From the NCBI RefSeq assembly GCF_963576545.1, contig NC_083637.1, forward strand, positions 24,460,507 through 24,524,506: a stretch of 64,000 bases of DNA, given 5' to 3'. The position numbers and the translations under genes were made by a program. Positions 295 through 57,882 of the stretch are shown one piece after another. Each line of letters begins with the position of its first letter. Within the stretch, counting starts at the first letter, position 1. The DNA comes from Limanda limanda (taxonomy: Eukaryota; Chordata; Actinopteri; Pleuronectiformes; Pleuronectidae). The notes under the pieces were generated by a model. It did not search any database. It was not told the DNA's origin and was given only the letters and a program-made list of their open reading frames with translations.

Positions 295-364
295 TTAACC
301 CTTGTGTTGTCCCAGGGTCTGGTTGACCCAGCATGTGTTTGTGTGCGTGTGACAGTGTCCCGAC

Positions 365-1740
365 TTGGCGCTTGGTCATGTGGAGCAATACAAATTATTT
401 TTTAAAAAAAGAGTAAACCGTGTGCCATCCCATTTTCTTCTTCTTCTTCCTCTTCTTCCTATTATTGTTATAATTTGTATCATCACCGAGCAAGAACAGG
501 CTCCAGTACACAACACTGGCAGCCAGAGAGATGCTCGCGTGCCCTCGGGTCACGGGGACCCCAACCGACAAGCGACGGGCCCTACGTCTTCGCCGTGCGT
601 CGCGTGGCCATGTGGAGCAATACAAATTATTTTTAAAAAACAGAGTAAACCGTGTGCCACCGCATTTTCTTCTTCTTTTTCTTCCTCTTCTTGTTATAAT
701 TTTTATCATCACCAAGCAAGAACTGGCTCAAGTACACAACACTGGCAGCCGCAGAGATGCTCGCGTGCCCTCGGGTCACCCAACCGACAAGCGACGGGCC
801 CTACGTCTTTGCGCGTGGTGTGTGCAGCAATACAAAAATAAAATAAAAATGAATGCATTTTCTTTATTATTATTACTGAGCAAGAGTCTTCTTCGGCGTC
901 TTCTTCCTCTTGTTTGTCTTTTTCTTCTTCTTCATCACATCACCGAGCAAGAACAGGCTCGAGTACGCAACGCGGGCGGCCAGGCGGGCCCGTCGTCTCG
1001 ACTCTCAGGGTCACGGGTAGATGCCGAACGACAAGAGACAGGCCATACATCACCTTGTCTCGCGTCTTCGCGTGTGTCTTGTGTAGCTATAAAAATGAAT
1101 AAAAATGAGTTTCCTTCTTCCTCTTGTTCGTCTTGTTCTTCTTCTTCACATCACTGAGCAAGAACAGACTCGAGTACGCAACGCGGGCGGCCAGGCTGGC
1201 CCGACGTCACGACTCTCAGGGTCGGGGAGATGCCGAACGACAAGAGACGGGGCATACATCACCTTGTCTCGCGTCTTTGCGTGTGTCTTGTGTAGCTATA
1301 AAAAATAATAAAAATGAGTTTCTTTTTTGTTATTATTACTGCGCAAGAGTCTTTTTCTTCTTCTTCTTCTTCTAGTTCTAGTTCTCGTTCTTCTTCCCGT
1401 TCCCATCACCGAGCAAGAACAGGCTCGAGCGCAGCCGCGAGCCTTCGAGTTTCAGAGACCCAGGCCAAAGAGACTCCCCAACGCGGGCATCCCAGGGGTC
1501 CTTCGTCACACCGCCGTGCAACATGGAGCGTGGCGTGCTGAGATTACAAAAAAAGTAAAACGCTTTGCCACTGCATAGTAATTTTATTTTTTTCAACGAT
1601 CACTGAGCAACAACAGGCTCGAGTACGCAAAGCGGGCGGCCGGGAGGGCCCGTCGCGCGACTCTCAGGGTCGGGGAGACCACAAGAGTTACGCCGTCTCG
1701 CGTTTTTTACGCGTGTGTCGTGCAGATATACAAAATGATA
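365..1740 (+). repeat. Subterminal repeat array, about 6 units (copy A)
   Basis: Imperfect tandem units of about 190-255 bp. Each carries the motif GAGCAAGAACAGGCTC or a close variant, near 488, 714, 945, 1156, 1411 and 1601. The GAGC and GCTC ends of the motif can pair. Each unit also has a GC-rich half (GACAAGCGACGGGCC-like), a short AATAAA-like or AAATTATTT A/T stretch and a TTC-rich run. The last units diverge from the first. Reading frames across the array are low-complexity and not believable as genes. Confidence 0.85.
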
Positions 1741-1754
1741 CAAAAAAATTAGTT

Positions 1755-1885
1755 TCCTTCTTCCTCTTGTGCATCTTGTTCTTGTTCTTGTTCTTGTTCT
1801 TGTTCTCCTTCTTGTTCTTGTTCTTCTTGTTCTTGTTCTTGTTCTTGTTCTTGTTCTTGTTCTTGTTCTTGTTCTTGTTCCTCTT
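1755..1885 (+). repeat. TTCTTG microsatellite
   Basis: About 110 bp of TTCTTG/TTC repeats immediately upstream of the leader of the gag-like gene. Copy B has a TTC-richer version at about 53975-54072. Confidence 0.9.
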
Positions 1886-1937
1886 CTTCGTTGGTGGAGG
1901 TGTAGTTGTGAAGACAGAGGAGGTGAAGGAAAGCGCG

Positions 1938-2045
1938 TGCAAATTTATATAGGTTTCTGTATGTTTATTGAATGTTCAGTGTTGTGTAGTGTTTGTGTAC
2001 GTTTAGTGTAGTTTGTCTGTGTGTTTGCCGTGTCTCGTGGCGGGG
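1938..2045 (+). promoter_or_regulatory. Leader and possible TATA region of the gag-like gene
   Basis: A TTTATATAGG stretch lies about 100 bp before the ATG at 2046. It is followed by a T/G-rich leader shared with copy B (54120-54227), although copy B does not keep the TATA-like core. This is inference from position only. Confidence 0.3.
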
Positions 2046-2573
2046 ATGGCGTCCGCAGGGACGCCGCCGATGTCCCTGAGACATGGCGTCAGGCTGGTGC
2101 CTCAGCTCAGCTCCACGGTGGAGCAGGTGCTGCTGGCCGTGGGGGAGAAGGTGGGACATGAGAACATATCCTACGCTTCCAGGATGAACAAAGCGCTGGT
2201 GATCTTTTTTAAAGATCCAGACTCGGTCACTAAGCTCATTGAAAGCGGTTTAACTTTAGAGGAGGAGTTCATTCAAGTGTCCCCGCTATCGGTAGCTTCC
2301 ACCCGGATCACCGTGTCCGGCGTCCCCCCGTTCATCCCCAATGAAGCTCTGGAGCGAGAGCTGAGGCAGTTCGGGAAGTTCGCGAGTGGGTTCCGCGCGG
2401 TGGGTCTGGGCTGCAGAGACACAAAGCTGAAGCACGTCCAGTCTCTGAGGAGACAAGCCTTCATGTTTCTGGATAACGAGTCGCAGACACTAGACGTGTC
2501 TTTCCGGGTTCGCTACGAGGAGCAGAAGAAGAAGAAGGAGAAGAAGAAGGAGGAGAAGGAGAAGGAGGAGTAG
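2046..2573 (+). CDS. LINE ORF1-like gag protein carried by piggyBac, copy A (truncated)
   Basis: The start is the ATG at 2046, chosen because MASAGTPP aligns with the MASSETPP start of the Tx1-type LINE ORF1 at 47633 (minus); the frame is open further upstream. About 160 codons match that ORF1 closely, through ASRMNKA, the STRITVSG-PPFIPNE segment and KHVQSLRRQ. In LINEs this region belongs to the RNA-binding/assembly protein and leads into a CCHC zinc knuckle. Here the protein breaks off right after RVRYEEQ into Lys/Glu-rich codons from a GAA tract and ends at a TAG (2571-2573). The CCHC knuckle, present in copy B, is therefore missing. The transposase downstream is on the same strand in another frame. 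Whether this protein ever served the transposon is unknown. Confidence 0.8.
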   Translation: MASAGTPPMSLRHGVRLVPQLSSTVEQVLLAVGEKVGHENISYASRMNKALVIFFKDPDSVTKLIESGLTLEEEFIQVSPLSVASTRITVSGVPPFIPNEALERELRQFGKFASGFRAVGLGCRDTKLKHVQSLRRQAFMFLDNESQTLDVSFRVRYEEQKKKKEKKKEEKEKEE

Positions 2574-2632
2574 GAGAAGGAGGAGAAGGAGAAGAAACAG
2601 AAGAAGTAGAAGAAGGAGAAGAAGGAGGACGA
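2518..2632 (+). repeat. GAA/GAG-rich tract
   Basis: Purine tract of GAA, GAG and AAG triplets (TTC on the other strand). It replaces the CCHC-coding part found in copy B and separates the gag-like reading frame from the transposase. Confidence 0.9.
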
Positions 2633-2635
2633 CAC

Positions 2636-4499
2636 GTGAAAAGAGAGACCTTCCTGTCCAAGAACGGAGAAAAATCATGGTCCTCGACACCGTACGGCAG
2701 AGAGGGCCGCTCCGCCTCCACCTCCTCATATTCGTCCTCGGCTATGCACGTCGGGGTCCCTTCCCCGGGCCCCACGACGTCCAGCGGCGTCAGCGACGCG
2801 GCCTCGACGTTCGGGCTGTTCGTCACGCCGACGATAGAGAACATCGTCCTGCAGATGACGAATCTGGAGGGTCGTCGCAAGTACGGCGACGGCTGGAAAG
2901 GGATGGACGCGACCGACCTGCGCACCTACGTGGGGCTGCTGATCTTGGCGGGCGTGTACAGATCCCGGGGTGAGGCCGCCGCCAGCCTGTGGGACGCCGA
3001 GAGCGGCCGCGCGATATTCCGCGCCACGATGCCCCTGAAAATGTCTTTCACACATACTCCAGACTGCTGCGATTCGATGACCGCGATTCGACGACCGCGA
3101 GACGAGACGCGCGAGACGTGCCACCGACAAATTGGCGGCCGTGTGAGAGGTCTGGGACGCTTGGGCGGCGAAGTGACCGTGGACGAGCAACTGGTTGCGT
3201 TCAGAGGTTGGTCACTGCGTTGTTATGTTACGTGGCCTCGTCGTCCTTGTCCGCCTGTATGCACCTGGCGACTCTTGTTCTTCTTCTTGTTCTTCTTCTT
3301 GTTCTTCTTGTTCTTCTTCTTCCCTGAAGATATTGTCGGTATTCATGTTTCGTCTCTTCTCTTCCCCTCTCCCTCCCCCCCCCCCCCCCCCCCCCCTCAA
3401 ACACGCACACACACATGCCAGGCCGGTGTCCTTTCCGACAGTACATGCCCAGCAAGCCGGCGAAATACAGGATCAAGTCGTGGGTGGCGTGCGACGCCAG
3501 ATCCAGCTACGCTCGGAAGATGCAAGTCTACACCGGAAAGCCGAGCGGCGGGCACCCGGAGAGGAACCTGGGGCTGCGGGTCGTGCTCGACCTCACGGAG
3601 GGACTGAGCGGGCGCAACGTCACGTGCGACAATTACTTCACCTCCTACCAACTCGCGCGGCAGCTCCTGGACAGGAACATCACCGTGGTCGGCACGGTTC
3701 GGAACAACAAGCCCGAGCTCCCGCCCCGGCTGCTCGCGGTCAAGGGACGAGCGGTGTTCTCCTCCGTGTTCGCCTCCACGCCCGCCGCCACTCTGTTGTC
3801 TTACGTCCCGAGGAAGAAAAACAGGAACGTTGTGCTCCTGAGCACGCGGCACTCGGAGGCCCAAGTCAGCGACGGCGTGGACGGCAAACCAGTCGTCGTC
3901 CTGGACTACAACCGCAAAAAGGAGGCGTGGACAACCTGGACAAGGTGATCGGAATGTACAGCTGCCGGAGGAAGGCCGCGCGCTGGCCCCTGGTCGTCTT
4001 CCACAACATCCTCGACGTCTCTTCCTACAACGCCTTTGTGACATGGCGAGAGGTCAACCCCGACTGGATGCCGGGCAAGCGGAACAAGCGCAGGGTGTTC
4101 CTCGAGCAGCTGGGAAAGGCTCTCGTGGCGCCGTACATCGTGCGGAGGGAGCGCGTCCCACGCACCGAGGCGTCTGCCGCGGTTGTGAAGGCCGTGAAAG
4201 CGGCCGCTGCCGCCGCCGCAGCCACCACCGAGCCGAGAGACGATGACAGCGGCCGAGACGACGCTCAGGTCCAACAACAACAACAACAACCCCAGGGTGC
4301 GGCCTCCTGTCTAGACCTGGTCGTCGCAGCCGCCGCAGCCGCAGCCTCCGTGGCAGCCCCGCTCGCCGCGAGCAAGAGGAAGAGGTGTCAGATATGCCCC
4401 AGGAACAAGGACTGTAAAACTCACACAAGGTGCCGCGGGTGCGCCAAATACATCTGCAAGGGCTGTTGCCTTTTCTTTTGCCCTTCGTGCGCGTGTTGA
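2636..4499 (+). pseudogene. piggyBac transposase relic, copy A (two exons)
   Basis: This is a DDE_Tnp_1_7-type piggyBac transposase. Exon 1 (about 2636-3206) has the family N-terminal part (FVTPTIENIVLQMTN, WKGMDATDLRTYVGLLILAG) and ends in VDEQLVAFRG, which holds the first catalytic Asp. Exon 2 (3422-4499) has RCPFRQYMPSKPAKY, CDNYFTSYQLARQLL (second Asp) and GGVDNLDKVIGMY (third Asp). It ends in a Cys-rich domain (CQICPRNKDC, CKGCCLFFCPSC), as in other piggyBac proteins. Joining 3206 to 3422 restores an uninterrupted family motif. The gene is dead: a frame change near 3045-3060, a TGA at 3144-3146, a loss of about 30 bp near 3168 relative to copy B, and a one-base deletion near 3914-3920. 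No good ATG is evident. Confidence 0.88.
3207..3421 (+). other. Intron in transposase, copy A
   Basis: It begins GTTGGT and ends in a C-rich tract followed by CACATGCCAG. Removing 215 bp joins AGA-G to GC-CGG and gives the family motif FRGRC. It contains TTCTTG repeats and a run of about 22 C. Copy B has the matching intron (55348-55595, 248 bp) with identical splice borders. Confidence 0.8.
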
Positions 4500-4732
4500 T
4501 GTGTGGTGGGCTGTGCGAGCAAGAACAGGCTCGAGTACGGGCGGCTGGGCTGGCACGGCGTTGCGAGTCTAAGGGTCACTGTGATCCCGAACGACAAGAG
4601 ACGGGCCATACGTCTTTGCGGCGTGTGTCGTGTGTAGCTATAAAAAATAATAAAAATGAGTTTCCTTCTTCCTCTTGTTCGTCTTGTACTTGTTCTTGTT
4701 CTTGTTCTTGTTCTTCTTCTTCTTCTTCTTCT
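4500..4732 (+). repeat. 3' subterminal repeat unit, copy A
   Basis: One unit of the same repeat that forms the 5' array, with GAGCAAGAACAGGCTC near 4519, in the same orientation as the 5' units. It ends in a TTCTTG/TTC tract at about 4685-4732 where similarity to piggyBac stops. Confidence 0.75.
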
Positions 4733-5251
4733 TGTGAAGCAGCTTCGATCTCCTACCTGGAATAAACAGCAACACGTCCACAGAAACGAGCCGCTGACAT
4801 GGAGCCAGCAGCCCGCGGACATCACCCAGCGAGCCCAAGCTGAGGAGGGGGCTGTGGCAGGTAACTCACCCCGACCGCAGGCTCTGTTTCCTCCGCCTCT
4901 CACCCGGCTCCCTGGCTGGTTAGCGTCCCCCCTCAGCTAGCTCCCCAGCTAACACCCCCTGCCTCGAGTTGAGTAGGGTGCTCTGGCTCGTACTTCACCC
5001 TGGTCTCCGCCTCCGCCAGATCTCCACCTCCGGGGGGGGGGGGGCTAAGCCATGTAAACAGAGTGTGACGTCGGAAAAGCCCATAATCCCATTGGACGCA
5101 CTCTAGCGTAGCGTTTCTGACAGAGAGGAACCACAACAGATCACGGGAGTTGTTTTTTTCCATAGTTTTTGGGACGGTAGACATGCCAGATACCCAAATT
5201 AACGTGTAGAAGCACTACAAAAGTGGAATTTGCATAATATGGACCCTTTAA
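4733..5251. mobile_element. 3' part of the TTAA-flanked element (block 1)
   Basis: Nearly identical to 31143-31666, the right end of the complete TTAA element at 28148-31662. It ends TATGGACCCT followed by TTAA (5248-5251). A G-homopolymer near 5033-5043 differs in length from the copy at 31441. Confidence 0.8.
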
Positions 5252-6257
<1,006 letters not shown>

Positions 6258-6680
6258 TGTTGGGGGGAGACTCCTGAGTGCTGACTGTCACACAATGGCT
6301 CGTAAAACTTGAGGCCTACAAGACCAAGCTGAAACCAGTTCTACTGGTTTCTACTCTGAATCCACACATTCCTCAGACAGCCTGGGGCCTCGCCTTGGTG
6401 GGGAAAGCATTTCCTGGGCTCCCTCAGAGGACCCCCACTGTGTTTCTAACTGCTCCCTGAGATTTGAACCCTGACATCTCATTGGCTGAGAGCCAACTGA
6501 AGCCCATGACCACTTCCTGAGGAGGCAGGAACTCCTCAGGTTGTATAAAACTGTTGAGCCCACAGAGCTCGCGGCCATTTTCCTGTACTGAAGTTGCAAC
6601 AAGACCTCCCGAGGTCTTACCAGATAACCCAGTAAACTAAAGGAGGCAATAACTACTTTTGTTTCAGCTTTTTCCTTGCA
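6258..6680 (+). mobile_element. LTR fragment (block 1)
   Basis: Begins TGTTGGGGGG, as do the LTRs at 33419 and 57883 and, inverted, at 14578. It includes a TATA-like GTTGTATAAAACTG near 6541. It is cut at about 6681, where hAT-related sequence starts. Confidence 0.7.
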
Positions 6681-6939
6681 CTTTTTTAACCGGGGCAGCT
6701 TTTGTAGTCATTACTGTAATGGTTTAGCGGAGCTTCCGTTTTTTCTAACAGGCGCAGCTTTTGTAGTTATTACGGTACAGGTTTAGCGGATGAGGAAGCG
6801 CATTGACCAATTGCATGCGAGTAAAGCCATCCCATGTGATACTACTCAGCCAATCAAGTCTGTGCATTCACGGCGGTAAACATTGTGACGCTGCCGACAG
6901 ATGACAGAGTTAGAGGCAAGTTAGACACGAAAAGACGGT

Positions 6940-7361: not shown

Positions 7362-9064
7362 GTGACAAAACATAAAGGTTTTGAACAAACATACCCACCT
7401 AAATCTGAAGTGAGATCACAGAAAATAAGTGGTCTCAGAGCCCAATATGACCAGTCCACCAGGATCCTGAGCCACTCATTCACTGCCCAACAACGTGCTC
7501 ATGAGTGTTCCCTCAGAGTTGCTTGGATTTGGGTCAACACAAAAAGCCATTTACTGATGGAGGGGTTATCAATGAATGCATGAGTGCAGTTGCCGAAACA
7601 CTTTTTGACGGAAAACAAAATCAAGAGGTTGGTGATAAATTAAAGCAAATACACATGTCAGCATCATCTGCCACAAAGAGAAGTGAACTATTAACTGAGG
7701 ATGTGCTAACCCAGCTAGATGAAGCCATGAAGAAGGCACCGTGTGTAGGCTTAGCCGTGGATGAGTCCATCGACGTGTGTGACAGTGCTCAGCTGTTGGT
7801 ATATGTCAGGTTTTTCAGCACCGACCAGATAGCGTTCTGTGAAGACCTGTTAGGTGTCACTCCCCTTCAGACCAGTACAAGAGGTGAAGACATCTACCTG
7901 GCTGTTAAGGAAATGTTAAAAAAGAGAGGGATACATCCAAAACAAGTGGTTTCAATTACCACAGATGGAGCCCCTGCAATGATAGGGAGAGAGAAAGGAG
8001 CTGTAGCAAGACTGAAAGAGGACAATCCTGAGCTCATAGCTTACCATTGTATTATTCATCAATCTGTCCACTGCGCCTCCCTATCAGATGAGCATGCTGA
8101 GGTGATGAACACAATGATGAAAATTATCAATTTTCTCAGGGCATCCTCTTCCTACCAGCATCGCATGCTAAGGGAATTCCTCAGAGAAGTTGATGCAGAC
8201 GCTGATGATCTTTTGCTGCACAACAATGTGAGATGGCTCAGTAAAGGCAGGGTGTTAGAGCGCTTTTGGTCCATCAGAAGGGAAGTTGCAGCTTTCATGG
8301 CAGAGCTAATAAGTCAGAAGGCAACACAGTTTTCTCTCTTTTTAGAAAATGAGAAACAGATGGATAATGTGGCCTTTTTGGTTGATATCACTTCGCATCT
8401 GAAGGAACTGAATTTGAGGCTACAGGGCAAGGACAATTCAATTTGTGAACTGATGACAGCTGTCCGCTCCTTTCAGAGGAAACTTGAGGTGTTCAAGGAA
8501 GACCTGCAGGGAGACTGTGCACACTTCCCAGCAGTGCAGGAACAGGTTCAGGGACAGAGAGATGTGTCTGCGTTTGTTGGCTTTATTGATAAGCTGATTG
8601 TAAACTTCAGCAACCGTTTTGACAGCTTCAGCTTTGGACAGCCGCTCACCATGTTCATTCAGAACCCATTTCTCATCACAGATGTCAGGGGGTTCTCAAA
8701 GGAAGTCACACAGCACTTTAAATGGGTAAACGCTGGGCCTCTCCAGATGCAATTGGTTGATCTCCAAGCAGATGTGGCCCTGAAAGAGCAGTTTGCAAGA
8801 ACTGACCCTTCCACTTTCTGGCTCCAAATGGTCTCATAGACAGCTTTCTCAGCTCTGAGGAAAGTAGCCCTGCACATCTTGACCATGTTTGGCTCAACAT
8901 ACAACTGCGAGGCAGCTTTCTCCAAAATGAACATTATCAAAACTAAATATCGTTCAAGGCTCACTAATGAGCACCTCCACATGTGTATGAGAATGGCCCT
9001 GACTCCATTCCGGCCCAGATTTAAAATCCTGGCAGGACAAGCTAGAGCTCAATTCTCTCACTGA
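7362..9064 (+). pseudogene. hAT transposase relic (GTF2IRD2/ZBED-like)
   Basis: It resembles the domesticated hAT proteins of the GTF2IRD2/FAM200/ZBED5 group. The first segment (7362-7530, QRAHECSLRVAWI) is in a different frame from the rest. A one-base shift near 7530 joins it to LGQHKKPFTDGG. The main frame, 7505-8839, has AVDESIDV (first catalytic Asp, about residue 86), ITTDGAPAMIG, AYHCIIHQ and VRWLSKGRVLERFW. It ends at a TAG (8837-8839). The same frame continues to 9064 with SKMNIIKTKYRSRL, the hAT C-terminal dimerisation region. The lesions seen are one frameshift, one stop and loss of the N-terminal BED finger to the minisatellite, so decay is mild. Confidence 0.88.
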
Positions 9065-12424: not shown

Positions 12425-14578
12425 TGTTGTGCAATAGGAGTAGACTTGACGTTGGCTAATTATTAATAATCATGAAATATGATTATTAAAATAATTTATT
12501 AAAAATAATTAAAAATTATAAGGTTATCACTTAAGAATAGTAAAATAATCAATTAGAAATTATACGGTTATCCATTAAGAATAGTTAAATAATTAATGAA
12601 AACAATAAAATTATCAATTAAGAATGATACAATCTGTAAATATTACTTATCGTAGCGGGGCACCACCCTGGTTACAGGGACCAACGAATCAAGCTATAAA
12701 TATCAGTCTCATATGATAAATGTTAAATTAATAATCTCAATAGTTAATATTAATGATTATTTATTAAACAATGAAGGGTTTTCGAGTTCAAGCACAGGCT
12801 ATCGTTATCCAGCTGTATTCACACACATATGCACAAATAATCACAGACTACAGATACTTTAATTACAAAAGCATTTATTAAAGAAAGGGGAAATATAGTT
12901 AATGTTATTCAATGATTCATCATTTCAACAAACTCCAATATTTCAAAGATAACAACAGCAGCAGCACTTATCACAATTCAGAAAATACATGTAAAACCTG
13001 CGGTCTACCTATGTATGTCTGTCTGTGTGTGTGTGTGTGTGTCAATGTGTCTCTCTATGTGTGTTTGTGAGAGAGAGAGAGCGAGAGATAAGAGGGGGAG
13101 TGGCACATCCAAGATGGCGGCCAATAATGATTCGTGGAATCAAGAGGGCCGAAAACTCTCAAAATGGTGGTTTGACTACAAACAAGATGGCGGAGTCACT
13201 TTGGATGTTAGAGCCAGAATGGGAGGAGAGAGAGAGAGAAGGCGTGGCAATAATAGACTCTCAAAATGGTGGTCTAACTCATGTTATTCCAAAATGGAGA
13301 CTATGTTAATGACCATGTGGCCTGAGCTCACAATGGCGATCACCACATGTATTACACAAAGGAAATTTCAGACAAAGAGAATTCTTGATCTCTGCTTGGG
13401 TTTGGGCCGAATGGCTTCCAGATGTGTTATACCTCTCTAAATATAGATTTAACTATGTGACATGAACTGTCTGACTACAGGTCGGAACGTTTGTGTAAGC
13501 AGGTTCAGGAGAAGAGAGAGAGAGAGAGAGAGCATGCAAGGAGAGAACAAACTCTTACAACAAACACCGTCAGAGACAAGTTACATTTACTTTACCACTC
13601 AGCACCCAAACGGCGTTGTGTGCTGAAGTTTAACCGGTAAAATCTCTGTAAAATTGTTCAGACGGGAACAGTGCAGCCGGAGACGCTTCGTCACGGCGCT
13701 TAAAAACTGTAACACACGGCCGTAACCGCTACGTATTAAAACTAACATCTGCCCGGACAATATAAACCTCTCTTACTGTAACCATAGTTTCGTGGGGTGC
13801 ATGCGCGTTGGCGCGAATATCCCGGAAGTTCAGTGAATAGCTTGTAGTCTCTCAGGCGGACTCCCGTGAGCTCCGCAGCTGGGCCGAGCAGGAGAGGATA
13901 CGTAGTGCTCCGTGACGGGATGAGGCTTCGTCTTCTTCGGTAGCAGCGGAGATCATGCTGCCTTACAGGAATGTGCGGCTGATTGTAGCCGTTGTAGGTC
14001 GTGTGGATAAAGAATAAAAGTCTGTGGAAAGTGTCGGAATCCGTCCCGCAGTGCACTTCCTGTTTCGGTCTTTCAAGTTAAAACAGCAAAAAGTCCTATC
14101 AAAATAAAACTTCGACTGAGATAAAAAGAAAGAAATATGAAATGAGTTAAAAAAAACGTCTTAACGCCTCCATTAGCTTACTGGGTTGACTGGTAAGACC
14201 CCTGGGGGTCTAGTTGCAACGTCAGCACTGGAGTAAAAAGAGAAAGATTTCTGTGAGTTCAGCGGTTTTGTTCTACCTGAGAGGTCCAGCCTCTTCAGGA
14301 AGTGGTCATGGGATTCAGTTGGCTCTCAGCCAATGAGAATGTCAGGGTTCCGACCTTAGTGGGCGGGGATTCGACCTCAGTGGGCGTTTCAGGGTTACAG
14401 TTGGGGTTCTCTTGAAGGACACCCGAGATGCTCCCCTGCTGGGCGAGGCTTCACGTTGTCTGAGGAATGTGTGGATGCAAAGCAGAAACCGGTAGAACTG
14501 GTTTCAGCTTGTCTTGTAGGCCTCAAGTTTTATGAGCCATTGTGTGGAGTTCAGATCTCAGGACCTCACCCCCCAACA
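12425..14578 (-). mobile_element. LTR (probably solo) inserted in the hAT element
   Basis: In minus orientation it begins TGTTGGGGGG and ends CACAACA, so it has TG...CA termini. It is flanked by CAGG on both sides (12421-12424 and 14579-14582). Most of it is an inverted, diverged copy of the LTR at 33419-35812, including the CTTGAGGCC segment, the GAAGAAGACGAAGC segment and the AAAATGGTGG repeats near 13160-13290. It differs from that LTR over the last 420 bp. No internal retroviral genes are present. Confidence 0.72.
13024..13085 (+). repeat. GT and GA microsatellites in the LTR
   Basis: Short GT run followed by GA run. A second GA run lies near 13514-13532. These correspond to the CA and CT expansions of the homologous LTR at 34752-35260. 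Confidence 0.8.
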
Positions 14579-14960: not shown

Positions 14961-16035
14961 TCATGTGACAACCTTTCTTTCACACACATAGTGCCGGGTG
15001 CCAGAGCAATTAATGTCATCCCAGTTGGATAACGCCTTCTCTCCAACGTGCACAATGCCAACACAGTCCCATTGTCCCATTTCTAATTTATCCCAAGGGG
15101 ATAAAGCGTTGTTAGGATTAGGTTTTTTCCAGAAAGTGACACTTGATTGGAGTGTTTGGTTGTTGACCCACACATAATTGCCCTCACTCTCCTGGTCTCC
15201 CAATCCGATCCAGGCTGCACTGAAAGGCTCGCCAGTTTTATTCTCAAATTTATATTTATAAATCAGGTTGGTCAAGAATTTCTGGTCATTTGAATCCAAA
15301 ACAACTGCCAGGTCACCCCCCTGACTTTGGCAATCCTTACGAGCCAAGTCCCATTTTCTTTTAGTGCTGGTTAAAGAAAAGCAGCGTGACTCATGCTCCA
15401 CCCAGCCTGGACTGCAACGTGAAGGAGGCGTTCATTTTTTTATTGAGATCATAGATTAGAATTCCGATCTTGTCATCATTCAATTGGTTTGTATTTATTC
15501 CTTCTTCCAGTTTTGCAGTGAAATTTTGGATTAGAGCGCTGATCTTCTCTTCATTCAATCTGATCCTTATCGAACATGAAGAATCCAGTTCTTCCAGTTT
15601 TGAAGTGAAATTTTGGATTGGAGCGATGATCTTCTCTTCATTCAATCCGATCCTTTTTATTTCTTCTATCAGTTTTTCCAGTTTTGCAGTGACATTTTGG
15701 ATTGGAGCGCTGATCTCTTCATGCGATCTGTCCCTTATCCACAATTCTTTTTTCAGTGAAATGTGACCTGCCTGTAGGAATGTAAACTCTTTTTCTAGTT
15801 TTGCAATTTTTGCCATGAAATTTGGGATTAGAGTGCTGAACTTCTCTTCATGCGATCTGTTCCTTATCGACAAGTCTATTAAAAGAGCATTCAGTTTTTG
15901 TAAAGCGGTTTGCTCTTTTTTCTCGAAGATCAGAAGCCCGAGCACTGTAAGAGAGAACAACCCAAACATGATTTGTATCAAATGATTATGTTTAAGCTGC
16001 ATTATGCCTATATCTATTAGAACCAAACGGCTCAT
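14961..16035 (-). CDS. Type II membrane C-type lectin, with a frame break
   Basis: The first segment (ATG at 16035, to 15391) has a short cytoplasmic end, a membrane segment at about residues 19-37 (IQIMFGLFSLTVLGLLIF) and a coiled-coil stalk. The stalk is built from about five 25-30 residue repeats of the type EEKISALIQNFTAKLEE, with NVT/NFT glycosylation sites. The second segment (about 15415-14961) is a full C-type lectin domain in another frame: CSPGWVEHESRCFSLT, WIGLGD, NWDDINCSGTRHYVCE and all six expected Cys. The Ca-site motifs are altered: KPN in place of EPN, WDD in place of WND. The two parts join at ACGTTGCAGTCC (about 15412), which is either a one-base frameshift or a splice acceptor (TTGCAG). 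The lectin domain has no introns, unusual for this family. Ligand unknown. Confidence 0.78.
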
Positions 16036-19590: not shown

Positions 19591-20046
19591 TCGTTTCGAT
19601 GGGATACGCCCCTGGCGCGTATTCACAGAAGCACTTATACCAATTCGCCAGCCCTGATAGGCTGGCAGTCGTGACTTCCTCGTCAAGGTGCCGCACCTTA
19701 AATACGGTGGACGCGGCGTCACACGTCATTCAAACACCCCATTTTTAATCAGCGTCGATCCTAACTAGCTGCTGTCCATAGACCGGAGCTAACACCTCCA
19801 ATGCCGGACGCTAGTGGTAGCAACGCCAATCCAACTGCCTTCACCATAGGTAGTTTTCAAATTTAAATAGCTCACTAAACTGCCTGCCACCGGAGCTAGC
19901 TAGCTAACAGGGATTATCATTCCAGATAATTTTCTCCCCTTTAGCACACCAGGCTAAATGGGACAAGCTGTAAAGTTTCCCTCCACCTCGTAACTAGGCG
20001 ATGCCAATCGCCTGTGCACCTGTCGTGACGACGAGGATTATGAATC

Positions 20047-20945: not shown

Positions 20946-21223
20946 CAAGCCCGCTTGGCTGAGAAAGCCCTTCTATTCCCTGTCAACCTAGGCTGCTCAA
21001 CCGGGCCCGTCACCCAGTCAGCAGGCCAGGCGGAAATAGAAGGCGACTTAGCGGTCAACCCCACCGCAAGCGGAGCTGCCAGCCGCTCCCTGTTCCCTGG
21101 CAGCCCAGCTATCCCGTGTGTTAGGGGAGAAATTACCCAGTGCCACCAATCCCTCTCGGCGACGCGTGGGCCCTGAGCTCAGTTCGTGCTTCCCATTCAA
21201 GAGCCGAAGAGACATGTTTCAGA

Positions 21224-21638: not shown

Positions 21639-21739
21639 TCCCGTTCCGCTTATCCTGAGCCTATTAGACCTACATGCACAGTAATACTCGCAAGTGTACA
21701 GCTGGTACGGGCCCCCAGAGATCGTCTGTGTCAGACAGA

Positions 21740-22468: not shown

Positions 22469-22469
22469 G

Positions 22470-23335: not shown

Positions 23336-23339
23336 TTCG

Positions 23340-31922: not shown

Positions 31923-33418
<1,496 letters not shown>

Positions 33419-34749: not shown

Positions 34750-34951
<202 letters not shown>

Positions 34952-35207: not shown

Positions 35208-35209
<2 letters not shown>

Positions 35210-35262
<53 letters not shown>

Positions 35263-42345: not shown

Positions 42346-45300
42346 TCAGAAACTTACATTCAGCTCTCCGTCACTCCCCACAGAGCATACAACCCCTCCA
42401 ACAGCCCATATGTGTCTGAAACCCTGCAAATCGTCCATCATTTGATAATAAGAATGCTCCACCCTCAGTCGGGCCTTCAGCAGTCCCTTCAGAACCAACA
42501 CCGGCTCCACACTACCGACACTCTGCGCCCGGTTCTTGCGTGTTAGCCAAATGGCCAATTTGGCAGAACCAGATAAAAAGTTCACCAATGTGTGTACACT
42601 CTTCTTCTGAGCACAGTACTTCGGGCCAAAAATAAACAAATCAAAAGAAAATTTCTCCCCTAGACCCAGAAACAACTTTTTTAAAAGTTCAAACAGCACT
42701 GTCAGCCGAGGACACTGAACGAATAAATGCACCAGGGTCTCGCTCTGAGAGCAGAAAATACACTCCTCCCCCTGCTCTGGATCCAGGTGCGCTCTGTATC
42801 TGTTCGTAGCTATCGCTCCATGTACAATCCTCCACTGGAGGTCTGCTGTCCGTTTTTCAACGGGCAGCTTGTACAGAGACCGCCAGCTGCCTTTCGGGGA
42901 AACGTCCGAACCAAAAAAACCCGTCCACTTCGACTCCTGCATGCCTGCCAAAGAGCGCAGGTTCAGCACCTTAGAACAGATTCGGTACAAATCCTTCTTC
43001 CCTGCAGCCTGAAAACTCTCCAGGTGTGGGGTTGTGAGAGACAGCAGCTGACCTCCTCCCTCCTGCCACTCCCCCGCAACTGGGGCGATAGACAGAGCGG
43101 GAAAACTGTATTCTCCCTCTTCGCTCCACTGGTCACATAGAGTGCGGTTCTGTGCAAATTCCCTCAGAGGTTGTTGCAGGGCAGCACAGACTTCCTCCAC
43201 CACTCGGTTGATCAACCTGATGGAGGTGATGTTGCTTCTCTCTCTTAAGGCTTCCACAGATGTTGCCGTCATCTTCATCAGATGCCCCAGTTTGGTACAG
43301 CCAGCCTCCCTAAGATAGGCTCGCAGGCTGGCAGACTGCAGTGTTTGAGTCTTTATGAAATTATTATAAAACAGAGGTTCCTCAAACAACCACATGCCCG
43401 GAATCTCATTTGTGGCACGTGAAACCTTAAAGATCTGCCATGCCTGCAATACCGAACTGTAAAAAGGTGTAAGTCCAGTTAGGTCCACATCCTCAAGCTG
43501 TAAAAGAAAAAGCTGTTTTTCGAAGCCCAATCGCCCAGCTCTCTTCAGCAGCAGCCGAGCTGTGTCAAACCAGCTTGGGCCGCAATTGTACATAAGTCTT
43601 TGGGCAGCCTGGAGTCTAAAAGAGGCAATTTTTGCCTGGATGTTAATTAGTCCCTGCCCCCCTTCAGCCACAGGCAGGTAGAGGGCTGCTGCCCGGACCC
43701 AGTGCCGGCCAGACCAGAAAAAGTCCAGGATGACTCGCTGAACATCCTCCATCAGGCCTCCCGGTGGCGTCAGAGCGAAGAGCCTATGCCAAAGAGTCGA
43801 GGCGACCAGGTTATTGGCCACCAGAACTCTTCCCCTATACGACAACTGGGGTAGCAACCATTTCCATTTAGACAACCGAGCGCACACTTTCTCCTTAACT
43901 CCCTCCCAGTTCTTCTTTTGAAAACCCTCAGTGCCCAAAAATACTCCCAACAATCTCAGGCCTTCCTTCCCCCACTCAAGACCTCCAGGCAGACTGGGCA
44001 CTGCCTGAACCCTCCACTGTCCCACCAATAAGGCTTCACTCTTTGCCCAGTTCACCCGAGCAGATGAGGCTTTTTCATACAGGGACAGGGTATCCTGCAA
44101 ACATTGAATATCCCCCTGGCTGGAGACAAAAATATTAACATCATCTGCATATGCAGAAACGGTAAGTGGACAATCAACATTATAAGACCCAGGCAGTGAG
44201 AGACCACTGAGCCGACCTCTCAACATGCACAGCAAGGGCTCAATAGCTAGGCTATATAGTTGACCGGAGAGAGGACAACCCTGTCTTATCCCTCGCTGTA
44301 CAGGGATTGGCCGACTCAGCCCTGCCCCCGTCCTTACCATACATTGAGCACCACTATACATTACACCAATCCAGGACAGGAACCCATCACCAATACCAAA
44401 AGCCCTAAGTGCAGAAAACAAATAAGAGTGATCCACCCTATCAAAGGCCTTCTCCTGGTCTAAAGAAACAATACCAACATCTACATTATGAGATCTACAT
44501 ACATCAATAATATCACGAATAAGAAAAATATTGTCCATAATTTTCCTGTCAGGTACACAATAACTTTGGTCTGTATGTACAAGTATTCCCAGGGTGTCCT
44601 TAAGTCTGTTGGATAGGGCTCTGGAAAGCACCTTATAGTCCGTACAAAGGAGAGCAACCGGCCTCCAGTTCTTAAGTAAGGCCAGGTCTCCTTTCTTGGG
44701 AAGCAGGGAAAGCACAGCTCGCTGACACGAGACAGGAAGCGATCCTGTTCTGAAACACTCCAATAAAACCCCATGTAAATCATGTCCGAGGGTATTCCAG
44801 AACCGCTTGTAAAAGTCAGTGGAGAGACCATCAATCCCAGGTGCCCGTCCTGATGCCATCTGATTTACAGCGACTGTCAACTCGTCCAGAGTCAGCTCAG
44901 AGTCCAGAGCAGTTTTCTCTCCTGGGATGAGCTGAGGAAGTCCCTCCAGGAGCTCCTCGCGGCACTCCATGCTGCATTGCTCTGCCCCAAAGAGGTCAGT
45001 GTAGAAATCCATTGCATGGGTCCTCATCTCAACTGGACTGGTGGTCACTCTGCCTCCAGGAAGCTTAAGACAGGTCATCTGCTTCCTCTGTGCCACCGAT
45101 TTCTCCAGATTAAAGAAGAAAGAGCTCGGGCCATCCATGTCCTTTAGCTGGAGGAAACGAGACCTGACAAGAGCTCCCTTCACTCTCTCCTGCAGGAGGG
45201 AACTCAACTCCAATCTCTTCTCCTGCAGCAGATTACCCGTGGTGGGATCTAAGACCCTATGTGACCCCTCTTCGATGTTCCTAATACTGGCTTCAAGCTC

Positions 45301-46323
45301 CTGAACTGCCGCTTTTATTTTTACAGTCGAATGGGAGGTATACTGCTGGCAAAAAACCCGAATTTGGGCCTTACCAACTTCCCACCACAGCTTCAAAGAA
45401 ACAAAATCTGCTCTCCTAAATTTCCATTGCTGCCAAAAACACTCAAAGCTTCTGCAGAAAGTACGGTCCTGCAGAAGACTATTATTAAATGACCAGTAGG
45501 ACTTAACCCTTTCACCTGGCGAAATGACCAAGTCTATGCTAACATAGTGGTGGTCAGTAAAGCCAACTGGACTTATGTGACTGCTGACTAATCTAGAGCT
45601 GAGACTTTTGGAAATGTAAATCCTATCTAGTCTAGCCGCACTTACCCTGTTATTTCTGACCCTCACCCATGTGTATTGACGGGATTGTGGATGTTTGACC
45701 CTCCATGTATCTAACAGATCCAGGTGTGCGATAACACTGTTAAGGCTCTGAGATGACTGTGGGTGGGGTTCTTCACTTGTCCTGTCTACAGTGAAATCCA
45801 GAGTGCAATTAAAATCCCCGCCCAGGATGAAAAGATCATACTGGTAATTTCTTATCTCATTTTTTAGCAGGGTGAAAAACCCCACTCTTTCTGTACCTCG
45901 ATTTGGCGCATATACGTTAACAAAACAGAACACAGAGCCCTCTAATTCTGCCTGAACAATCAATAACCTGCCCTTCACCACTTCAGTAGAAGATAATACC
46001 TTTATATTGGCATCTTTCCTCAACAGAACAGCTACTCCTGCACTAAGGTTGGTGCCATGACTAAGGGTACACGAGCCCTCCCACCATAAACCCCAATCTA
46101 TCTCGTCTGCTGGATTTGTATGTGTCTCTTGCAAAAACAGCACATCAACCCTTTTTTGAGTGGCGACTTCAGAAATTAATGCCCTTCTGTGTCTGTCCCT
46201 CCCACCATTAATGTTTAAAGACCCTATTTTGAGGCTCCGCATAGAGGTCAGAAAAGAGAAACAGATAAGATGAACAAGAAAGGAACATAAAAAGAGGAAA
46301 AACACCGTGTGGTACATGATCAT
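42346..46323 (-). CDS. LINE ORF2: endonuclease and reverse transcriptase
   Basis: 1325 codons without a stop. The N-terminal apurinic-type endonuclease has SLNINGGRD, FLQETHTNP, LGGDFNC and FTDHHYVSID (about residues 30-270). The reverse transcriptase (about 490-780) has LLPKKGDLALLKNWRP, SLDQEKAFDRVDH, GIRQGCPLSG and YADD (about residues 724-727). A Cys/His motif, CIFCSQSETLVHLFVQC, lies near residue 1186. The order and motifs match Tx1/L1-type elements. The first 27 residues are very hydrophobic and may be leader read-through; MRSLKIGSLN at about 46242 is a likely true start. The ATG at 46323 lies one base after the ORF1 stop (TAACATG), suggesting coupled translation. Confidence 0.95.
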   Translation of the reverse strand: MIMYHTVFFLFLCSFLVHLICFSFLTSMRSLKIGSLNINGGRDRHRRALISEVATQKRVDVLFLQETHTNPADEIDWGLWWEGSCTLSHGTNLSAGVAVLLRKDANIKVLSSTEVVKGRLLIVQAELEGSVFCFVNVYAPNRGTERVGFFTLLKNEIRNYQYDLFILGGDFNCTLDFTVDRTSEEPHPQSSQSLNSVIAHLDLLDTWRVKHPQSRQYTWVRVRNNRVSAARLDRIYISKSLSSRLVSSHISPVGFTDHHYVSIDLVISPGERVKSYWSFNNSLLQDRTFCRSFECFWQQWKFRRADFVSLKLWWEVGKAQIRVFCQQYTSHSTVKIKAAVQELEASIRNIEEGSHRVLDPTTGNLLQEKRLELSSLLQERVKGALVRSRFLQLKDMDGPSSFFFNLEKSVAQRKQMTCLKLPGGRVTTSPVEMRTHAMDFYTDLFGAEQCSMECREELLEGLPQLIPGEKTALDSELTLDELTVAVNQMASGRAPGIDGLSTDFYKRFWNTLGHDLHGVLLECFRTGSLPVSCQRAVLSLLPKKGDLALLKNWRPVALLCTDYKVLSRALSNRLKDTLGILVHTDQSYCVPDRKIMDNIFLIRDIIDVCRSHNVDVGIVSLDQEKAFDRVDHSYLFSALRAFGIGDGFLSWIGVMYSGAQCMVRTGAGLSRPIPVQRGIRQGCPLSGQLYSLAIEPLLCMLRGRLSGLSLPGSYNVDCPLTVSAYADDVNIFVSSQGDIQCLQDTLSLYEKASSARVNWAKSEALLVGQWRVQAVPSLPGGLEWGKEGLRLLGVFLGTEGFQKKNWEGVKEKVCARLSKWKWLLPQLSYRGRVLVANNLVASTLWHRLFALTPPGGLMEDVQRVILDFFWSGRHWVRAAALYLPVAEGGQGLINIQAKIASFRLQAAQRLMYNCGPSWFDTARLLLKRAGRLGFEKQLFLLQLEDVDLTGLTPFYSSVLQAWQIFKVSRATNEIPGMWLFEEPLFYNNFIKTQTLQSASLRAYLREAGCTKLGHLMKMTATSVEALRERSNITSIRLINRVVEEVCAALQQPLREFAQNRTLCDQWSEEGEYSFPALSIAPVAGEWQEGGGQLLSLTTPHLESFQAAGKKDLYRICSKVLNLRSLAGMQESKWTGFFGSDVSPKGSWRSLYKLPVEKRTADLQWRIVHGAIATNRYRAHLDPEQGEECIFCSQSETLVHLFVQCPRLTVLFELLKKLFLGLGEKFSFDLFIFGPKYCAQKKSVHTLVNFLSGSAKLAIWLTRKNRAQSVGSVEPVLVLKGLLKARLRVEHSYYQMMDDLQGFRHIWAVGGVVCSVGSDGELNVSF

Positions 46324-46324
46324 G

Positions 46325-47633
46325 TTACTTCTTAGTCTTTTTAGCAGTTTTACCTTTTTTTGCTTTTCTCAGAATTGTAATATGCTTTTTAAGGCGAAAA
46401 CGCTTCTTTTCGTCCAAGAGGTCAAAACCGACCAATCTTTGCAGTACACCAACAGATCTGATGAACTTGTCAGCGTCACTGAAGTACTCATTTAGTTTAA
46501 CAGACTTTTTAAAAGTCACGTCCAGAAAATGGTTTATTTCCTCTAAAGAATAGAGATCTGTGTTCCTGATGGAAGCTTCACCTATCGATACTGTATCTGA
46601 CTCAGAGTCATACTCCATGTCTTCTCCTTCACCTGATGCCTGACTAATTAACATATCCTGTCCTTCATTGATAATCACAGTGGGATCTCTGCCTGCAGAA
46701 CTTGTGGAAGCTACTTCACTGCCTGCAGACTGAGAACTTCTCAGGTTCCCTGCAGCCACAGGAGCCTGCTGTTTCTCAGGCTCACTCTGTTCCTCCCTAT
46801 CTAAGTCATCATTCTCAGGACGTGAACCAGTGGCACCGGCTGCCACGTCCTCAGCACCGGGATCCGCACCCGCATCCGCGGCGCTAGCCGCGGACCCAGC
46901 ACCGGACTCGCCAGCCGCAGACCCGGCCGCGGACCCAGCACCGGACCCGACAACCGCGGACCCAGCACCGGACCCGACAACCGCGGACCCAGCACCGGAG
47001 CCGCCAGCCGCGGACCCACCGGAGCCGCTCGCCGCATCAGCGGAGCGAGCCGCCTCCTGCTGTCTATGTGGACACGCAAAGCGTTTATGTCCCACATCTC
47101 CACACTCAAAACATTTGAACTGTCCTGAGCTGGCGTACACCATATAAAACCCATCACCGTGCTTCACTCTGAACGACACATCGAGTGTTTGTGTCGGCGA
47201 GTCCAGGAACATGTACACCTGCCGCCTCAGAGACTGTACGTGCTTCAGTTTGGGATCCTTACATCCCAAACTCACCATTTTAAATCCACCGGCAAACTTG
47301 CCGAACCTACGTAGCTCGATCTCTAATAACTCGTTCGGTATGAACGGCGGAACACCGGACACGGTGATCCGCGTGGATGGGACTGACAGTGGGGAGACCT
47401 GCACGAATAAGTCCCTGATAAACACGCTACTCTCTACCAGCTGATACACAAGGGGCTCCTCTTTCATGAACACAACCACTGCTTTATTCATTCGAGATGC
47501 AAAAGATAAATTTTTCATGACCTACCTGCTCCCCGACAGCCAACCGAACTTCCTCCACGGTAACGCTACTATCCGGCGGGACTATCCTAACTCCCTGCCG
47601 GATAGACGGAGGTGGCGTCTCGGAGGACGCCAT
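46325..47633 (-). pseudogene. LINE ORF1 with one frameshift
   Basis: The ATG at 47633 (MASSETPPPSIRQGVRIVP) opens the protein. An extra base in an A-run at about 47511-47515 shifts the frame. From about 47515 the frame is open for 397 codons to a TAA (46325-46327). It contains ASRMNKAVVVF, STRITVSGVPPFIPNE, a CCHC knuckle (CFECGDVGHKRFAC, about 47070-47120), Gly/Ala/Ser repeats (GAGSAVVGS, about 46900-47040) and an acidic region. It ends in a basic tail (KAKKGKTAKKTKK). ORF1 proteins of this group bind the element RNA. The N-terminal 200 residues are the source type of the gag-like genes in both piggyBac copies. Confidence 0.88.
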
Positions 47634-51845: not shown

Positions 51846-51959
51846 TTAACCCTTGTGTTGTCCCAGGGTCTGGTTGACCCAGCATGTGTTTGTGTGCGTG
51901 TGACAGTGTCCCGACTTGGCGCGTGGCCATGAGAAGCAATACAAATTATTTAAAAAAAA

Positions 51960-53945
51960 AAGAGTAAACCGTGTGCCATCGCATTTTCTTCTTCTTCTTC
52001 TTCCTCTTCTTCCTATTATTGTTATAATTTTTATCATCAATGAGCAAGAACAGGCTCCAATACACAACACTGGCAGCCAGAGAAATGCTCGCGTGCCCTC
52101 GGGTCACAGGGACCCCAACCGACAAGCGACGGGCCCTACGTCTTCGCCGTGCGTCGCGTGGCCATGTGGAGCAATACAAATTATTTTTAAAAAACAGAGT
52201 AAACCGTGTGCCACTGCATTTTCTTCTTCTTCTTCTTCTTCCTCTTCCTGTTATAATTTGTATCATCACCGAGCAAGAACAGGCTCCAGTACACAACACT
52301 GGCAGCCAGAGAGATGCTCGCGTGCCCTCGGGTCACGGGGACCCCAACCGACAAGCGACGGGCCCTACGTCTTCGCCGTGCGTCGCGTGGCCATGTGGAG
52401 CAATACAAATTATTTTTAAAAAACAGAGTAAACCGTGTGCCACCGCATTTTCTTCTTCTTTTTCTTCCTCTTCTTGTTATAATTTTTATCATCACCGAGC
52501 AAGAACAGGCTCCAGTACGCAACACTGGCAGCCAGAGAGATGCTCGCGTGCCCTTGGGTCACGGGGACCCCAACCGACAAGCGACGGGCCCTACGTCTTC
52601 GCCGTGCGTCTCGTGGCCATGTGGAGCAATACAAATTATTTTTAAAAAACAGAGTAAACCGTGTGCCACCGCATTTTCTTCTTCTTTTTCTTCCTCTGTA
52701 TAATTTTTAACATCACCGAGCAAGAACAGGCTCAAGTACACAACACTGGCAGCCGCAGAGATGCTCGCATGCCCTCGGGTCACGGGGACCCCAACCGACA
52801 AGCGACGGGCCCTACGTCTTCGCCGTGCGTCGCGTGGTCATGTGAAGCAATACAAATTATTTTTAAAAAACAGAGTAAACCGTGTGCCACCGCATTTTCT
52901 TCTTCTTCTTCTTCCTCTTCTTGTTATAATTTTTATCATCACCGAGCAAGAACAGGCTCCAGTACACAACACTGGCAGCCAGAGAGATGCTCGCGTGCCC
53001 TCAGGTCACGGGGACCCCAACCGACAAGCGACGGGCCCTACGTCTTCGCCGTGCGTTGCGTTGCCATGTGGAGCAATACAAATTATTTTTAAAAAACAGA
53101 GTAAACCGTGTGCCACCGCATTTTCTTCTTCCTCTTGTTTGTCTTTTTCTTCTTCTTCTTCACATCACCGAGCAAGAACAGGCTCGAGTACGGAACGCGG
53201 GCGGCCAGGCTGGCCCGACGTCGCGAGTCTCAGGGTCACGGTGACCCCGAACGACAAGAGACGGGCCATATGTATTTGCGTGTGTCGTGTGTAGCTATAA
53301 AAAATAATAAAAATGAGTTTCCTTCTTCCTCTTGTTCTTCTTCTTCTTCTTCACATCACCGAGCAAGAACAGACTCGAGTACGCAACGCGGGCGGCCGGG
53401 CTGGCCCGACGTCGCAACTCTCAGGGTCGGGGAGATGCCGAACGACAAGAGACGGGGCATACATCACCTTGTCTCGCGTCTTTGCGTGTGTTTTGTGTAG
53501 CTATAAAAAATAATAAAAATGAGTTTCTTTTTTGTTATTATTACTGCGCAAGAGTCTTTTTCTTCTTCTTCTTCTTCTAGTTCTAGTTCTCGTTCTTCTT
53601 CCCGTTCCCATCACCGAGCAAGAACAGGCTCGAGCGCAGCCGCGAGCCTTCGAGTTTCAGAGACCCAGGCCAAAGAGACTCCCCAACGCGGGCATCCCAG
53701 GGGTCCTTCGTCACACCGCCGTGCAACATGGAGCGTGGCGTGCTGAGATTACAAAAAAGTAAAACGCTTTGCCACTGCATAGTAATTTTATTGTTTTTAA
53801 CGATCACTGAGCAACAACAGGCTCGAGTACGCAACGCGGGCGGCCGGGAGGGCCCGTCGCGCGACTCTCAGGGTCGGGGAGACCACAAGAGTTACGCCGT
53901 CTCGTGTTTTTTACGCGTGTGTCGTGCAGATATACAAAATGATAC
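51960..53945 (+). repeat. Subterminal repeat array, about 9 units (copy B)
   Basis: GAGCAAGAACAGGCTC or a variant near 52042, 52271, 52497, 52718, 52944, 53170, 53361, 53616 and 53808. The first five units are nearly identical and about 226-229 bp apart; the last four match the last units of copy A. Three extra copies of the first unit type account for the difference from copy A. Confidence 0.88.
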
Positions 53946-54072: not shown

Positions 54073-55032
54073 GTTGGTGGAGGTGTAGTTGTGAAGACAG
54101 AGAAGGTGAAGGAAAGCGCGTTCAAACTTATTCAGATTTCTGTATCTTTATTGTATGTTCATTGTTGTGTAGTGTTTGTGTACGTTTAGTGTATTTTGTC
54201 TGTGTGTTTTCCGTGTCTGTGGGGGGGATGGCGTCCGCAGGGACGCCGCCGATGTCCCTGAGACATGGCGTCAGGCTGGTGCCTCAGCTCAGCTCCACGG
54301 TGGAGCAGGTGCTGCTGGCCGTGGGGGAGCAGGTGGGACATGAGAACATATCCTACGCTTCCAGGATGAACAAGGCGCTGGTGATCTTTTTTAAAGATCC
54401 AGACTCGGTCACTAAGCTCATTGAAAGCGGTTTAACTTTAGAGGAGGAGTTCATTCAAGTGTCCCCGCTAGCGGTAGCTTCCACCCGGATCACCGTGTCC
54501 GGCGCCCCCCCGTTCATCCCCAATGAAGCTCTGGAGCGAGAGCTGAGGCGGTTCGGGAAGTTCGCGAGTGGGTTCCGCGCGGTGGGTCTGGGCTGCAGAG
54601 ACACGAAGCTGAAGCACGTCCAGTCTCTGAGGAGACAAGCCTTCATGTTTCTGGATAACGAGTCGCAGACACTAGACGTGTCTTTCCGGGTTCGCTACGA
54701 GGAGCAGTTCTATATGGTGTATGCGAGCTCGGGGAGCATGAAGTGTTTTCAGTGTGGAGAAGTGGGACACAAGAAAGTGACGTGCCCGAACGGGAGATGG
54801 GCGGGGGGGGCCGCTGGAGCGGAGGGCAGCGCCGGGGTGACTCGTCCTGCGTGGGGCCGGGCGGCCGGTGCTGCTGCGTCCTCTGCGGCTGCGGTTTCTG
54901 CTGCAGCGGGTCCCGGTGCCGCGGATGCGGTTCCGGAGGCGGCGGCTCCCGGTGCCGCGGATGCGTTTCCGGTGGCTCCCGGTGCCGCGGATGCGTTTCC
55001 GGTGGCGGCGGCTCCCGGGTCGGCTCCGGTGG

Positions 55033-57882
<2,850 letters not shown>

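What the first reader, a model, noticed from the sequence alone, without database searches (positions are those of the whole stretch)
2046..4499. piggyBac element carrying a LINE ORF1-type gag gene (copy A)
A coding region that starts MASAGTPP and matches the ORF1 of the Tx1-type LINE at 47633-46325 sits upstream of, and on the same strand as, a piggyBac transposase, behind the TTAA terminus. Capture of a retrotransposon RNA-binding protein by a cut-and-paste transposon would be a new kind of composite element. In Xenopus, the Tx1L LINE is known to insert into the piggyBac-like Tx1D, so a Tx1 LINE landing in a piggyBac is a plausible origin. Function is inference.
Basis: partly seen in the sequence, partly recalled or inferred. 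Interest (0 to 1): 0.88.

Follow-up and report, generated by a model that had tools for sequence, protein, structure and literature searches.

The report
Broken piggyBac carrying LINE gene fragment
Two decayed copies of a cut-and-paste fish transposon carry, ahead of their dead transposase gene, the first part of a gene from a copy-and-paste retrotransposon; most likely one mobile element landed inside another and was then trimmed and carried along, and nothing yet shows that the borrowed gene works for its host element.

Summary
A Tx1-type LINE ORF1 (gag-like: two predicted RRM folds, plus a CCHC knuckle in copy B) lies upstream of, and on the same strand as, a piggyBac transposase in copy A (2046-4499) and copy B (54228-56545). 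Each element begins far upstream, at an identical TTAA/TIR end (295 and 51846) in unrelated left flanks. The composite therefore existed before these copies and probably moved as a unit.

The 'captured gene' reading is not supported. Neither copy has both genes open. A and B share a frameshift and a stop in the transposase, so their ancestor was probably already dead and moved in trans. The gag is cut at a different place in each copy. None of the 255 database proteins retrieved holds both parts. The window's own LINE is a different lineage from the gag's source. The 5' edge of the gag segment lies in the (TTC)n tract that ends internal repeats of the piggyBac; in copy A another repeat (X) joins at the downstream (CTT)n tract.

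Best reading: a Tx1 LINE inserted into a (TTC)n tract of a piggyBac, lost its 3' part, and hitch-hiked. A working captured gag remains possible (about 12%). Other genomic copies could not be examined: the genome search did not complete.

The parts
295..312 (+). Copy A left end: TTAA target plus piggyBac-type terminal repeat (CCCTTGTGTTGTCC)
   Evidence: exact match, chance 0.08; the match to copy B starts at this base
369..1322 (+). Copy A internal tandem repeats (226-bp and 209-bp units, with (TTC)n tracts at unit ends)
1774..1889 (+). (TTCTTG)n/(TTC)n tract that closes the last upstream repeat unit; the gag segment begins at its edge
1890..2045 (+). Leader between (TTC)n and gag ATG, probably LINE 5' UTR (inference); 10% different between A and B
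2046..2525 (+). Copy A gag-like gene, 160 codons, Tx1 LINE ORF1 N-terminal part, no CCHC
2526..2638 (+). Copy A (GAA)n stretch, acidic run in the transposase frame; the gag frame stops at 2571-2573
2639..3206 (+). Copy A transposase exon 1, broken by frameshifts and a stop
3207..3421 (+). Copy A transposase intron (GT...AG) with (TTC)n inside
3422..4499 (+). Copy A transposase exon 2, DDE_Tnp_1_7 and cysteine-rich C-terminus, one frameshift near 3916
4516..4733 (+). Copy A downstream repeat unit and (CTT)n tract
4734..6682 (+). Repeat X (also at 31143-35211 and 56545-59727) with a Tc1-like piece, joined to copy A at its (CTT)n tract
51846..51863 (+). Copy B left end, TTAA plus the same terminal repeat
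51920..53527 (+). Copy B internal tandem repeats (5.6 copies of the 226-bp unit, then units like those at 900-1322 in A)
54228..55029 (+). Copy B gag-like gene: RRM-like part, CCHC knuckle, Ala/Gly/Pro-rich tail; cut into the transposase at about 55030 (ORF runs on to 55109)
55030..56545 (+). Copy B transposase remains (intron 55348-55595), N-terminus missing, C-terminus cut at 56545 into Tc1/X
46325..47633 (-). Tx1-type LINE ORF1 used for comparison (one frameshift near codon 39)
42346..46368 (-). ORF2 of that LINE, endonuclease and reverse transcriptase, 1340 aa stop to stop

Best explanation
A fish piggyBac element (TTAA target, CCYT-type end, one-intron transposase, internal tandem repeats rich in (TTC)n) was hit by a Tx1-clade LINE that inserted at a (TTC)n tract just upstream of the transposase gene. 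The LINE's 3' half and the transposase N-terminus were then lost through deletions with different end points in each copy. The piggyBac carrying the LINE 5' part was moved to new TTAA sites by transposase supplied in trans, since its own gene was already broken. Shown: composite structure in two copies, left ends, unrelated left flanks, shared lesions, different gag cut points. Inferred: LINE insertion as the origin, (TTC)n targeting, transposition as a unit, trans mobilisation. The gag is a passenger, not a working part of the transposon.
For: Same order (terminal repeat, tandem repeats, (TTC)n, gag, transposase) in both copies from the first base of the TTAA, with left flanks that match nothing else in the window. 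Both transposases carry the same frameshift (A 3041, B 55177) and the same stop (A 3144, B 55254). Gag is cut after codon 160 in A and at about codon 267 in B. The 5' edge of the gag segment is in a (TTC)n tract, where upstream repeat units also join, and repeat X joins copy A at the downstream (CTT)n tract, so these tracts look like landing sites. Gag falls inside the fish Tx1 ORF1 tree. Of 255 database proteins retrieved, 125 match the gag, 130 the transposase and 0 both; 0 of the 120 listed transposase relatives match the gag. In 32 of those 120 an N-terminus was recognised, and those of the 25 printed are acidic or other leaders.
Against: No trace of LINE ORF2 or of the ORF1 C-terminal domain in either copy, so LINE insertion is not shown directly. 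Both copies kept the 5' part of the LINE, the opposite of ordinary 5' truncation (recalled). The 6 rows of the gag clade all lack the ORF1 C-terminal domain, as a shortened separate gene would; but 42 other rows lack it too, and at least A, B and P0058 are cut short. Distinct changes within the clade favour variable columns (30 changes, p 0.013; 23 not in A or B, p 0.037), as in a working protein, though only 2 of 6 rows are below 0.05 alone. The gag frame has no stop or frameshift up to the cut in either copy. The shared stop could in principle arise twice. Right ends are missing, and A and B both adjoin repeat X, so part of their likeness could come from segmental duplication.
Confidence: 0.68

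Rival explanations
1. True capture: an active lineage of this piggyBac carries a shortened Tx1 ORF1 (RRM-RRM-CCHC) as a second gene or as an N-terminal extension of the transposase, giving an RNA- or nucleic-acid-binding helper. A and B are dead offshoots of it.
For: Same position in two copies. Gag clade of six with 99% SH-aLRT, none with the ORF1 C-terminal domain. Weak sign of purifying selection inside the clade. In copy A the gag runs into the acidic transposase N-terminus with only a frame change between them.
Against: 0 of 255 database proteins retrieved match both parts (the lists were capped at 120 per search). The two closest transposases (P0121, P0122; Pleuronectes platessa, 90 and 84%) show no gag, though their N-termini look incomplete. 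Transposase lesions are shared by A and B. No copy with both genes open was seen.
Confidence: 0.12
2. The gag belongs to a small non-autonomous LINE derivative that encodes only ORF1 (like mammalian HAL1), and one such copy sits in the piggyBac.
For: Gag clade members P0001, P0002, P0003, P0058 are all short and lack the ORF1 C-terminal domain. HAL1 sets the precedent (PMC5753468, passage seen).
Against: No contig of these members could be read, so it is unknown what follows them. Many other ORF1 rows also lack the domain: 48 of 123 rows in all.
Confidence: 0.12
3. A and B are parts of one segmental duplication and the gag-piggyBac junction arose once by chance rearrangement, without transposition of a composite.
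For: Both copies adjoin repeat X on the right, and A-B divergence is low (0.9-3.8% outside the leader).
Against: Likeness begins exactly at TTAA/terminal repeat in both, with unrelated left flanks, as expected of transposition. Repeat X has a third copy (31143) without piggyBac.
Confidence: 0.08

Closest known systems
piggyBac superfamily (PGBD4-like transposons of teleost fish)
   Same: TTAA target, CCYT-type end, DDE_Tnp_1_7, cysteine-rich C-terminus; P0121 of Pleuronectes platessa 90% identical over 73% of the query
   Different: Gag-like LINE ORF1 upstream of the transposase; transposase broken; right end missing
Xenopus Tx1D/Tx1L composite (recalled, Garrett, Knutzon and Carroll 1989; not seen in any call)
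   Same: A Tx1 LINE inside a DNA transposon made largely of internal tandem repeats; gag-like ORF1 with CCHC (recalled)
   Different: There the LINE is full length and sits in a repeat unit (recalled); here only its 5' part remains next to the transposase
Tx1-clade LINEs that target microsatellites (Kojima and Fujiwara 2004, seen only as a reference; names such as Koshi and Kibi recalled)
   Same: ORF1 family and (TTC)n at the 5' edge
   Different: No 3' end and no target duplication can be seen, so targeting is inferred
HAL1 (half L1) elements (PMC5753468, passage)
   Same: ORF1 without ORF2
   Different: Mammalian L1 derivative that moves as a retroelement, not inside a DNA transposon
Teratorn (PMC5601938, abstract start and passages; PMC6431247, passages)
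   Same: Fish piggyBac carrying genes of another kind of mobile element
   Different: There the fusion is active and the cargo is a herpesvirus genome; here a gene fragment in dead copies

Membership tests
piggyBac superfamily | TTAA target and ends starting CCYT | tested here: met
   left ends TTAA-CCCTTGTGTTGTCC at 295 and 51846; rule read in a passage of PMC5601938
piggyBac superfamily | DDE_Tnp_1_7 transposase | tested here: met
   E down to 5.6e-29; broken in both copies
piggyBac superfamily | Matching inverted right end with TTAA duplication | tested here: not met
   none found in the window; both copies are cut or interrupted and adjoin repeat X
Tx1-clade LINE ORF1 | Sequence falls among Tx1 ORF1 proteins | tested here: met
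   tree of 123 rows; a 70% identical hit, P0018, is named Transposon TX1 putative 82 kDa ORF 1
Tx1-clade LINE ORF1 | RRM-like fold followed by a CCHC knuckle | tested here: met
   copy B: two RRM-like folds in the model, CCHC below the Pfam cut-off at 18.3 of 20.8 bits; copy A keeps only the RRM-like part
Tx1-clade LINE ORF1 | Conserved C-terminal domain | tested here: not met
   absent in A and B
Tx1-clade LINE (whole element) | ORF2 with endonuclease and reverse transcriptase downstream | tested here: not met
   no ORF2 match in copies A or B up to E 1
Microsatellite-targeting Tx1 LINE | Insertion at a fixed point of a microsatellite | tested here: inconclusive
   5' edge at (TTC)n in A and B; probably the same ancestral junction, so one event only
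Captured accessory gene of a DNA transposon | Present and open in autonomous copies | not testable with these tools
   The genome search unanswered throughout; 0 of 255 database proteins retrieved hold both parts

The most novel reading that the evidence does not exclude
A fish (probably flatfish) piggyBac lineage took over the RNA-binding half of a Tx1 LINE ORF1, together with the LINE's own leader as a promoter, and active copies elsewhere in the genome express it beside or fused to the transposase.
Probability: 0.12. Interest if true: 0.75.

Novelty: new variant of a known kind. Interest (0 to 1): 0.3.

Why it matters
If only nested, it is a fish counterpart of the Xenopus Tx1 composite and suggests that a cut-and-paste element with microsatellite-rich internal repeats can pick up LINE gene pieces and spread them. 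If the gag were kept and expressed, it would be a DNA transposon using a retrotransposon RNA-binding protein, and the old question whether Tx1 composites ever act as units could be tested in fish.

Tried and rejected
Chance resemblance: rejected (for the LINE ORF1; exact terminal repeats). Gag from the window's own LINE: rejected by the tree (path 0.72 against 0.06 to P0001 and P0002). A versus B selection test on gag: 6 codon differences in 159, 4 non-synonymous and 2 synonymous, too few. Gag does not differ significantly in divergence from the upstream stretch, exon 1 or exon 2 (p 0.76, 0.38, 0.38; exon 2 tail 0.08), only from the leader (p 3.7e-06). Disabling lesions are too few to show that the gag was spared. 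Transposase on the same contigs as P0001, P0002, P0003 or P0058: contig lengths 4297, 7959, 7963 and 95919 do not appear among the listed transposase hits, which proves nothing because lists are capped and short broken ORFs are not candidates. Viral and genome collections: no relatives; those tools warn that records near the window's genome may be left out. Solved structures by profile: best is Terminal uridylyltransferase 4 at 1.3e-4, then uS15 (0.015) and retroviral Gag knuckles (0.035 and weaker); nothing identifying. Literature: no paper with Tx1, piggyBac and Tx1D, none with piggyBac, gag-like, CCHC and fused, and nothing describing this composite in the titles and abstract starts listed (lists capped). 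Christensen 2000 on Tx1L is not held; I did not look up the 1989 Xenopus paper, so what I say of Tx1D is recalled.

Full report
What is there. The gag-like reading frame starts MASAGTPP at 2046 in copy A and at 54228 in copy B. Both lie on the + strand upstream of piggyBac transposase pieces that match Pfam PF13843. The elements begin with an identical TTAA plus terminal repeat at 295 and 51846, and the likeness between the copies begins exactly there. The left flanks (1-294 and 51545-51845) match only themselves in the window. Behind the end lie tandem repeats of 226 bp and about 209 bp, then a (TTC)n tract, a leader of about 150 bp, the gag, and the transposase with one GT-AG intron (A 3207-3421, B 55348-55595). 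A repeat unit follows the transposase in copy A. No right terminal repeat was found for either copy.

State of the genes. Aligned to P0121 of Pleuronectes platessa, both transposases share a frameshift (A 3041, B 55177) and a stop (A 3144, B 55254). A has further lesions at 3109, 3165 and 3916; B has one at 56030, and one called at 55005, in the gag part just before the junction. The ancestor of A and B was therefore probably already unable to make transposase and, by inference, moved in trans. The gag is open up to its cut, which is after codon 160 in A and at about codon 267 in B. In A the next stretch is (GAA)n, which in the transposase frame reads as an acidic run like those at the N-terminus of piggyBac relatives. 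In B the cut leads into the middle of exon 1, at 55030. The common ancestor must therefore have held more gag than A and more transposase than B. What lay between, an ORF2 or nothing, is lost.

Divergence. Outside the leader A and B differ by 0.94% (426 bp upstream), 1.26% (gag), 2.09% (exon 1 part), 2.06% (exon 2 part) and 3.80% (exon 2 tail); the leader of 150 bp differs by 10%. The leader value is unexplained.

Origin. Upstream repeat units end in (TTC)n tracts, and the gag segment begins at the edge of such a tract. In copy A repeat X joins at the downstream (CTT)n tract; X has another copy at 31143 with the same left edge, without piggyBac. In copy B the transposase is cut straight into the Tc1 part of X. 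X in A, B and C (the 31143 copy) differs by 12 (A-B), 7 (A-C) and 5 (B-C) of 923 bases, so X may have been part of the ancestor of A and B, but this is not shown. Together this suggests that the TTC tracts of this piggyBac received other elements, and that the gag is what is left of one.

Test of capture. Of 846 transposase relatives the best 120 were listed; none matched the gag at E 0.01. A query joining gag and exon 1 gave 422 proteins, of which the best 120 were listed. Of all 255 proteins retrieved in the three searches, 125 match the gag, 130 the transposase and 0 both at E 0.001. Against this, the six gag-clade rows all lack the ORF1 C-terminal domain, as do 42 other rows of the 123, and distinct changes within the clade favour variable columns (30 changes, p 0.013; 23 not in A or B, p 0.037), though row by row only winA and P0002 fall below 0.05. 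These are weak signs that the gag lineage was working, and they fit an active LINE as well as a captured gene.

Limits. The genome search did not answer in 16 tries, so the share of genomic copies with gag is unknown. The host is inferred to be a flatfish or a near relative from the best hits only. Recalled, not seen: Tx1D structure, names of microsatellite-targeting LINEs.

Verdict. A real composite of two known kinds of element, probably mobile once as a unit, most likely a nested LINE fragment carried by a dead piggyBac.

Noticed in passing
1895-2045 and 54077-54227: The 150-bp leader before gag differs 10% between copies A and B (15 of 150, 11 transversions) while both sides differ about 1%; unexplained, perhaps recombination with another subfamily.
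   Followed up: partly
31143-35211, 4734-6682, 56545-59727: Repeat X with a Tc1-like insert (type recalled), 97.7-99.3% alike over the longer blocks of three copies, an older copy near 12861-14578 on the other strand; identity of X unknown.
   Followed up: partly
42346-47633 (-): Nearly intact Tx1-type LINE: ORF2 frame of 1340 aa open, ORF1 with one frameshift; CT-rich repeats lie at both sides (41531-42202 and 47844-47880), so it too may target a microsatellite.
   Followed up: partly
48154-49071 (-): TRIM-type gene (B-box, TRIM coiled coil, PRY), just beyond the 5' side of the LINE.
   Followed up: no
14961-16035 (-): C-type lectin domain frame with an 87-bp tandem repeat in the adjoining open frame.
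   Followed up: no
20044-23484 (+): Broken retroelement with a reverse transcriptase (RVT_1, 2.9e-22, at 21935-22465), possibly DIRS-like (type recalled).
   Followed up: no
36039-37745 (+): Frames that look by eye like a retroelement gag with cysteine knuckles followed by a protease-like part; no Pfam match.
   Followed up: no
7505-8839 (+): 444-residue open frame with a DUF4371 match below cut-off, hAT-like (type recalled).
   Followed up: no
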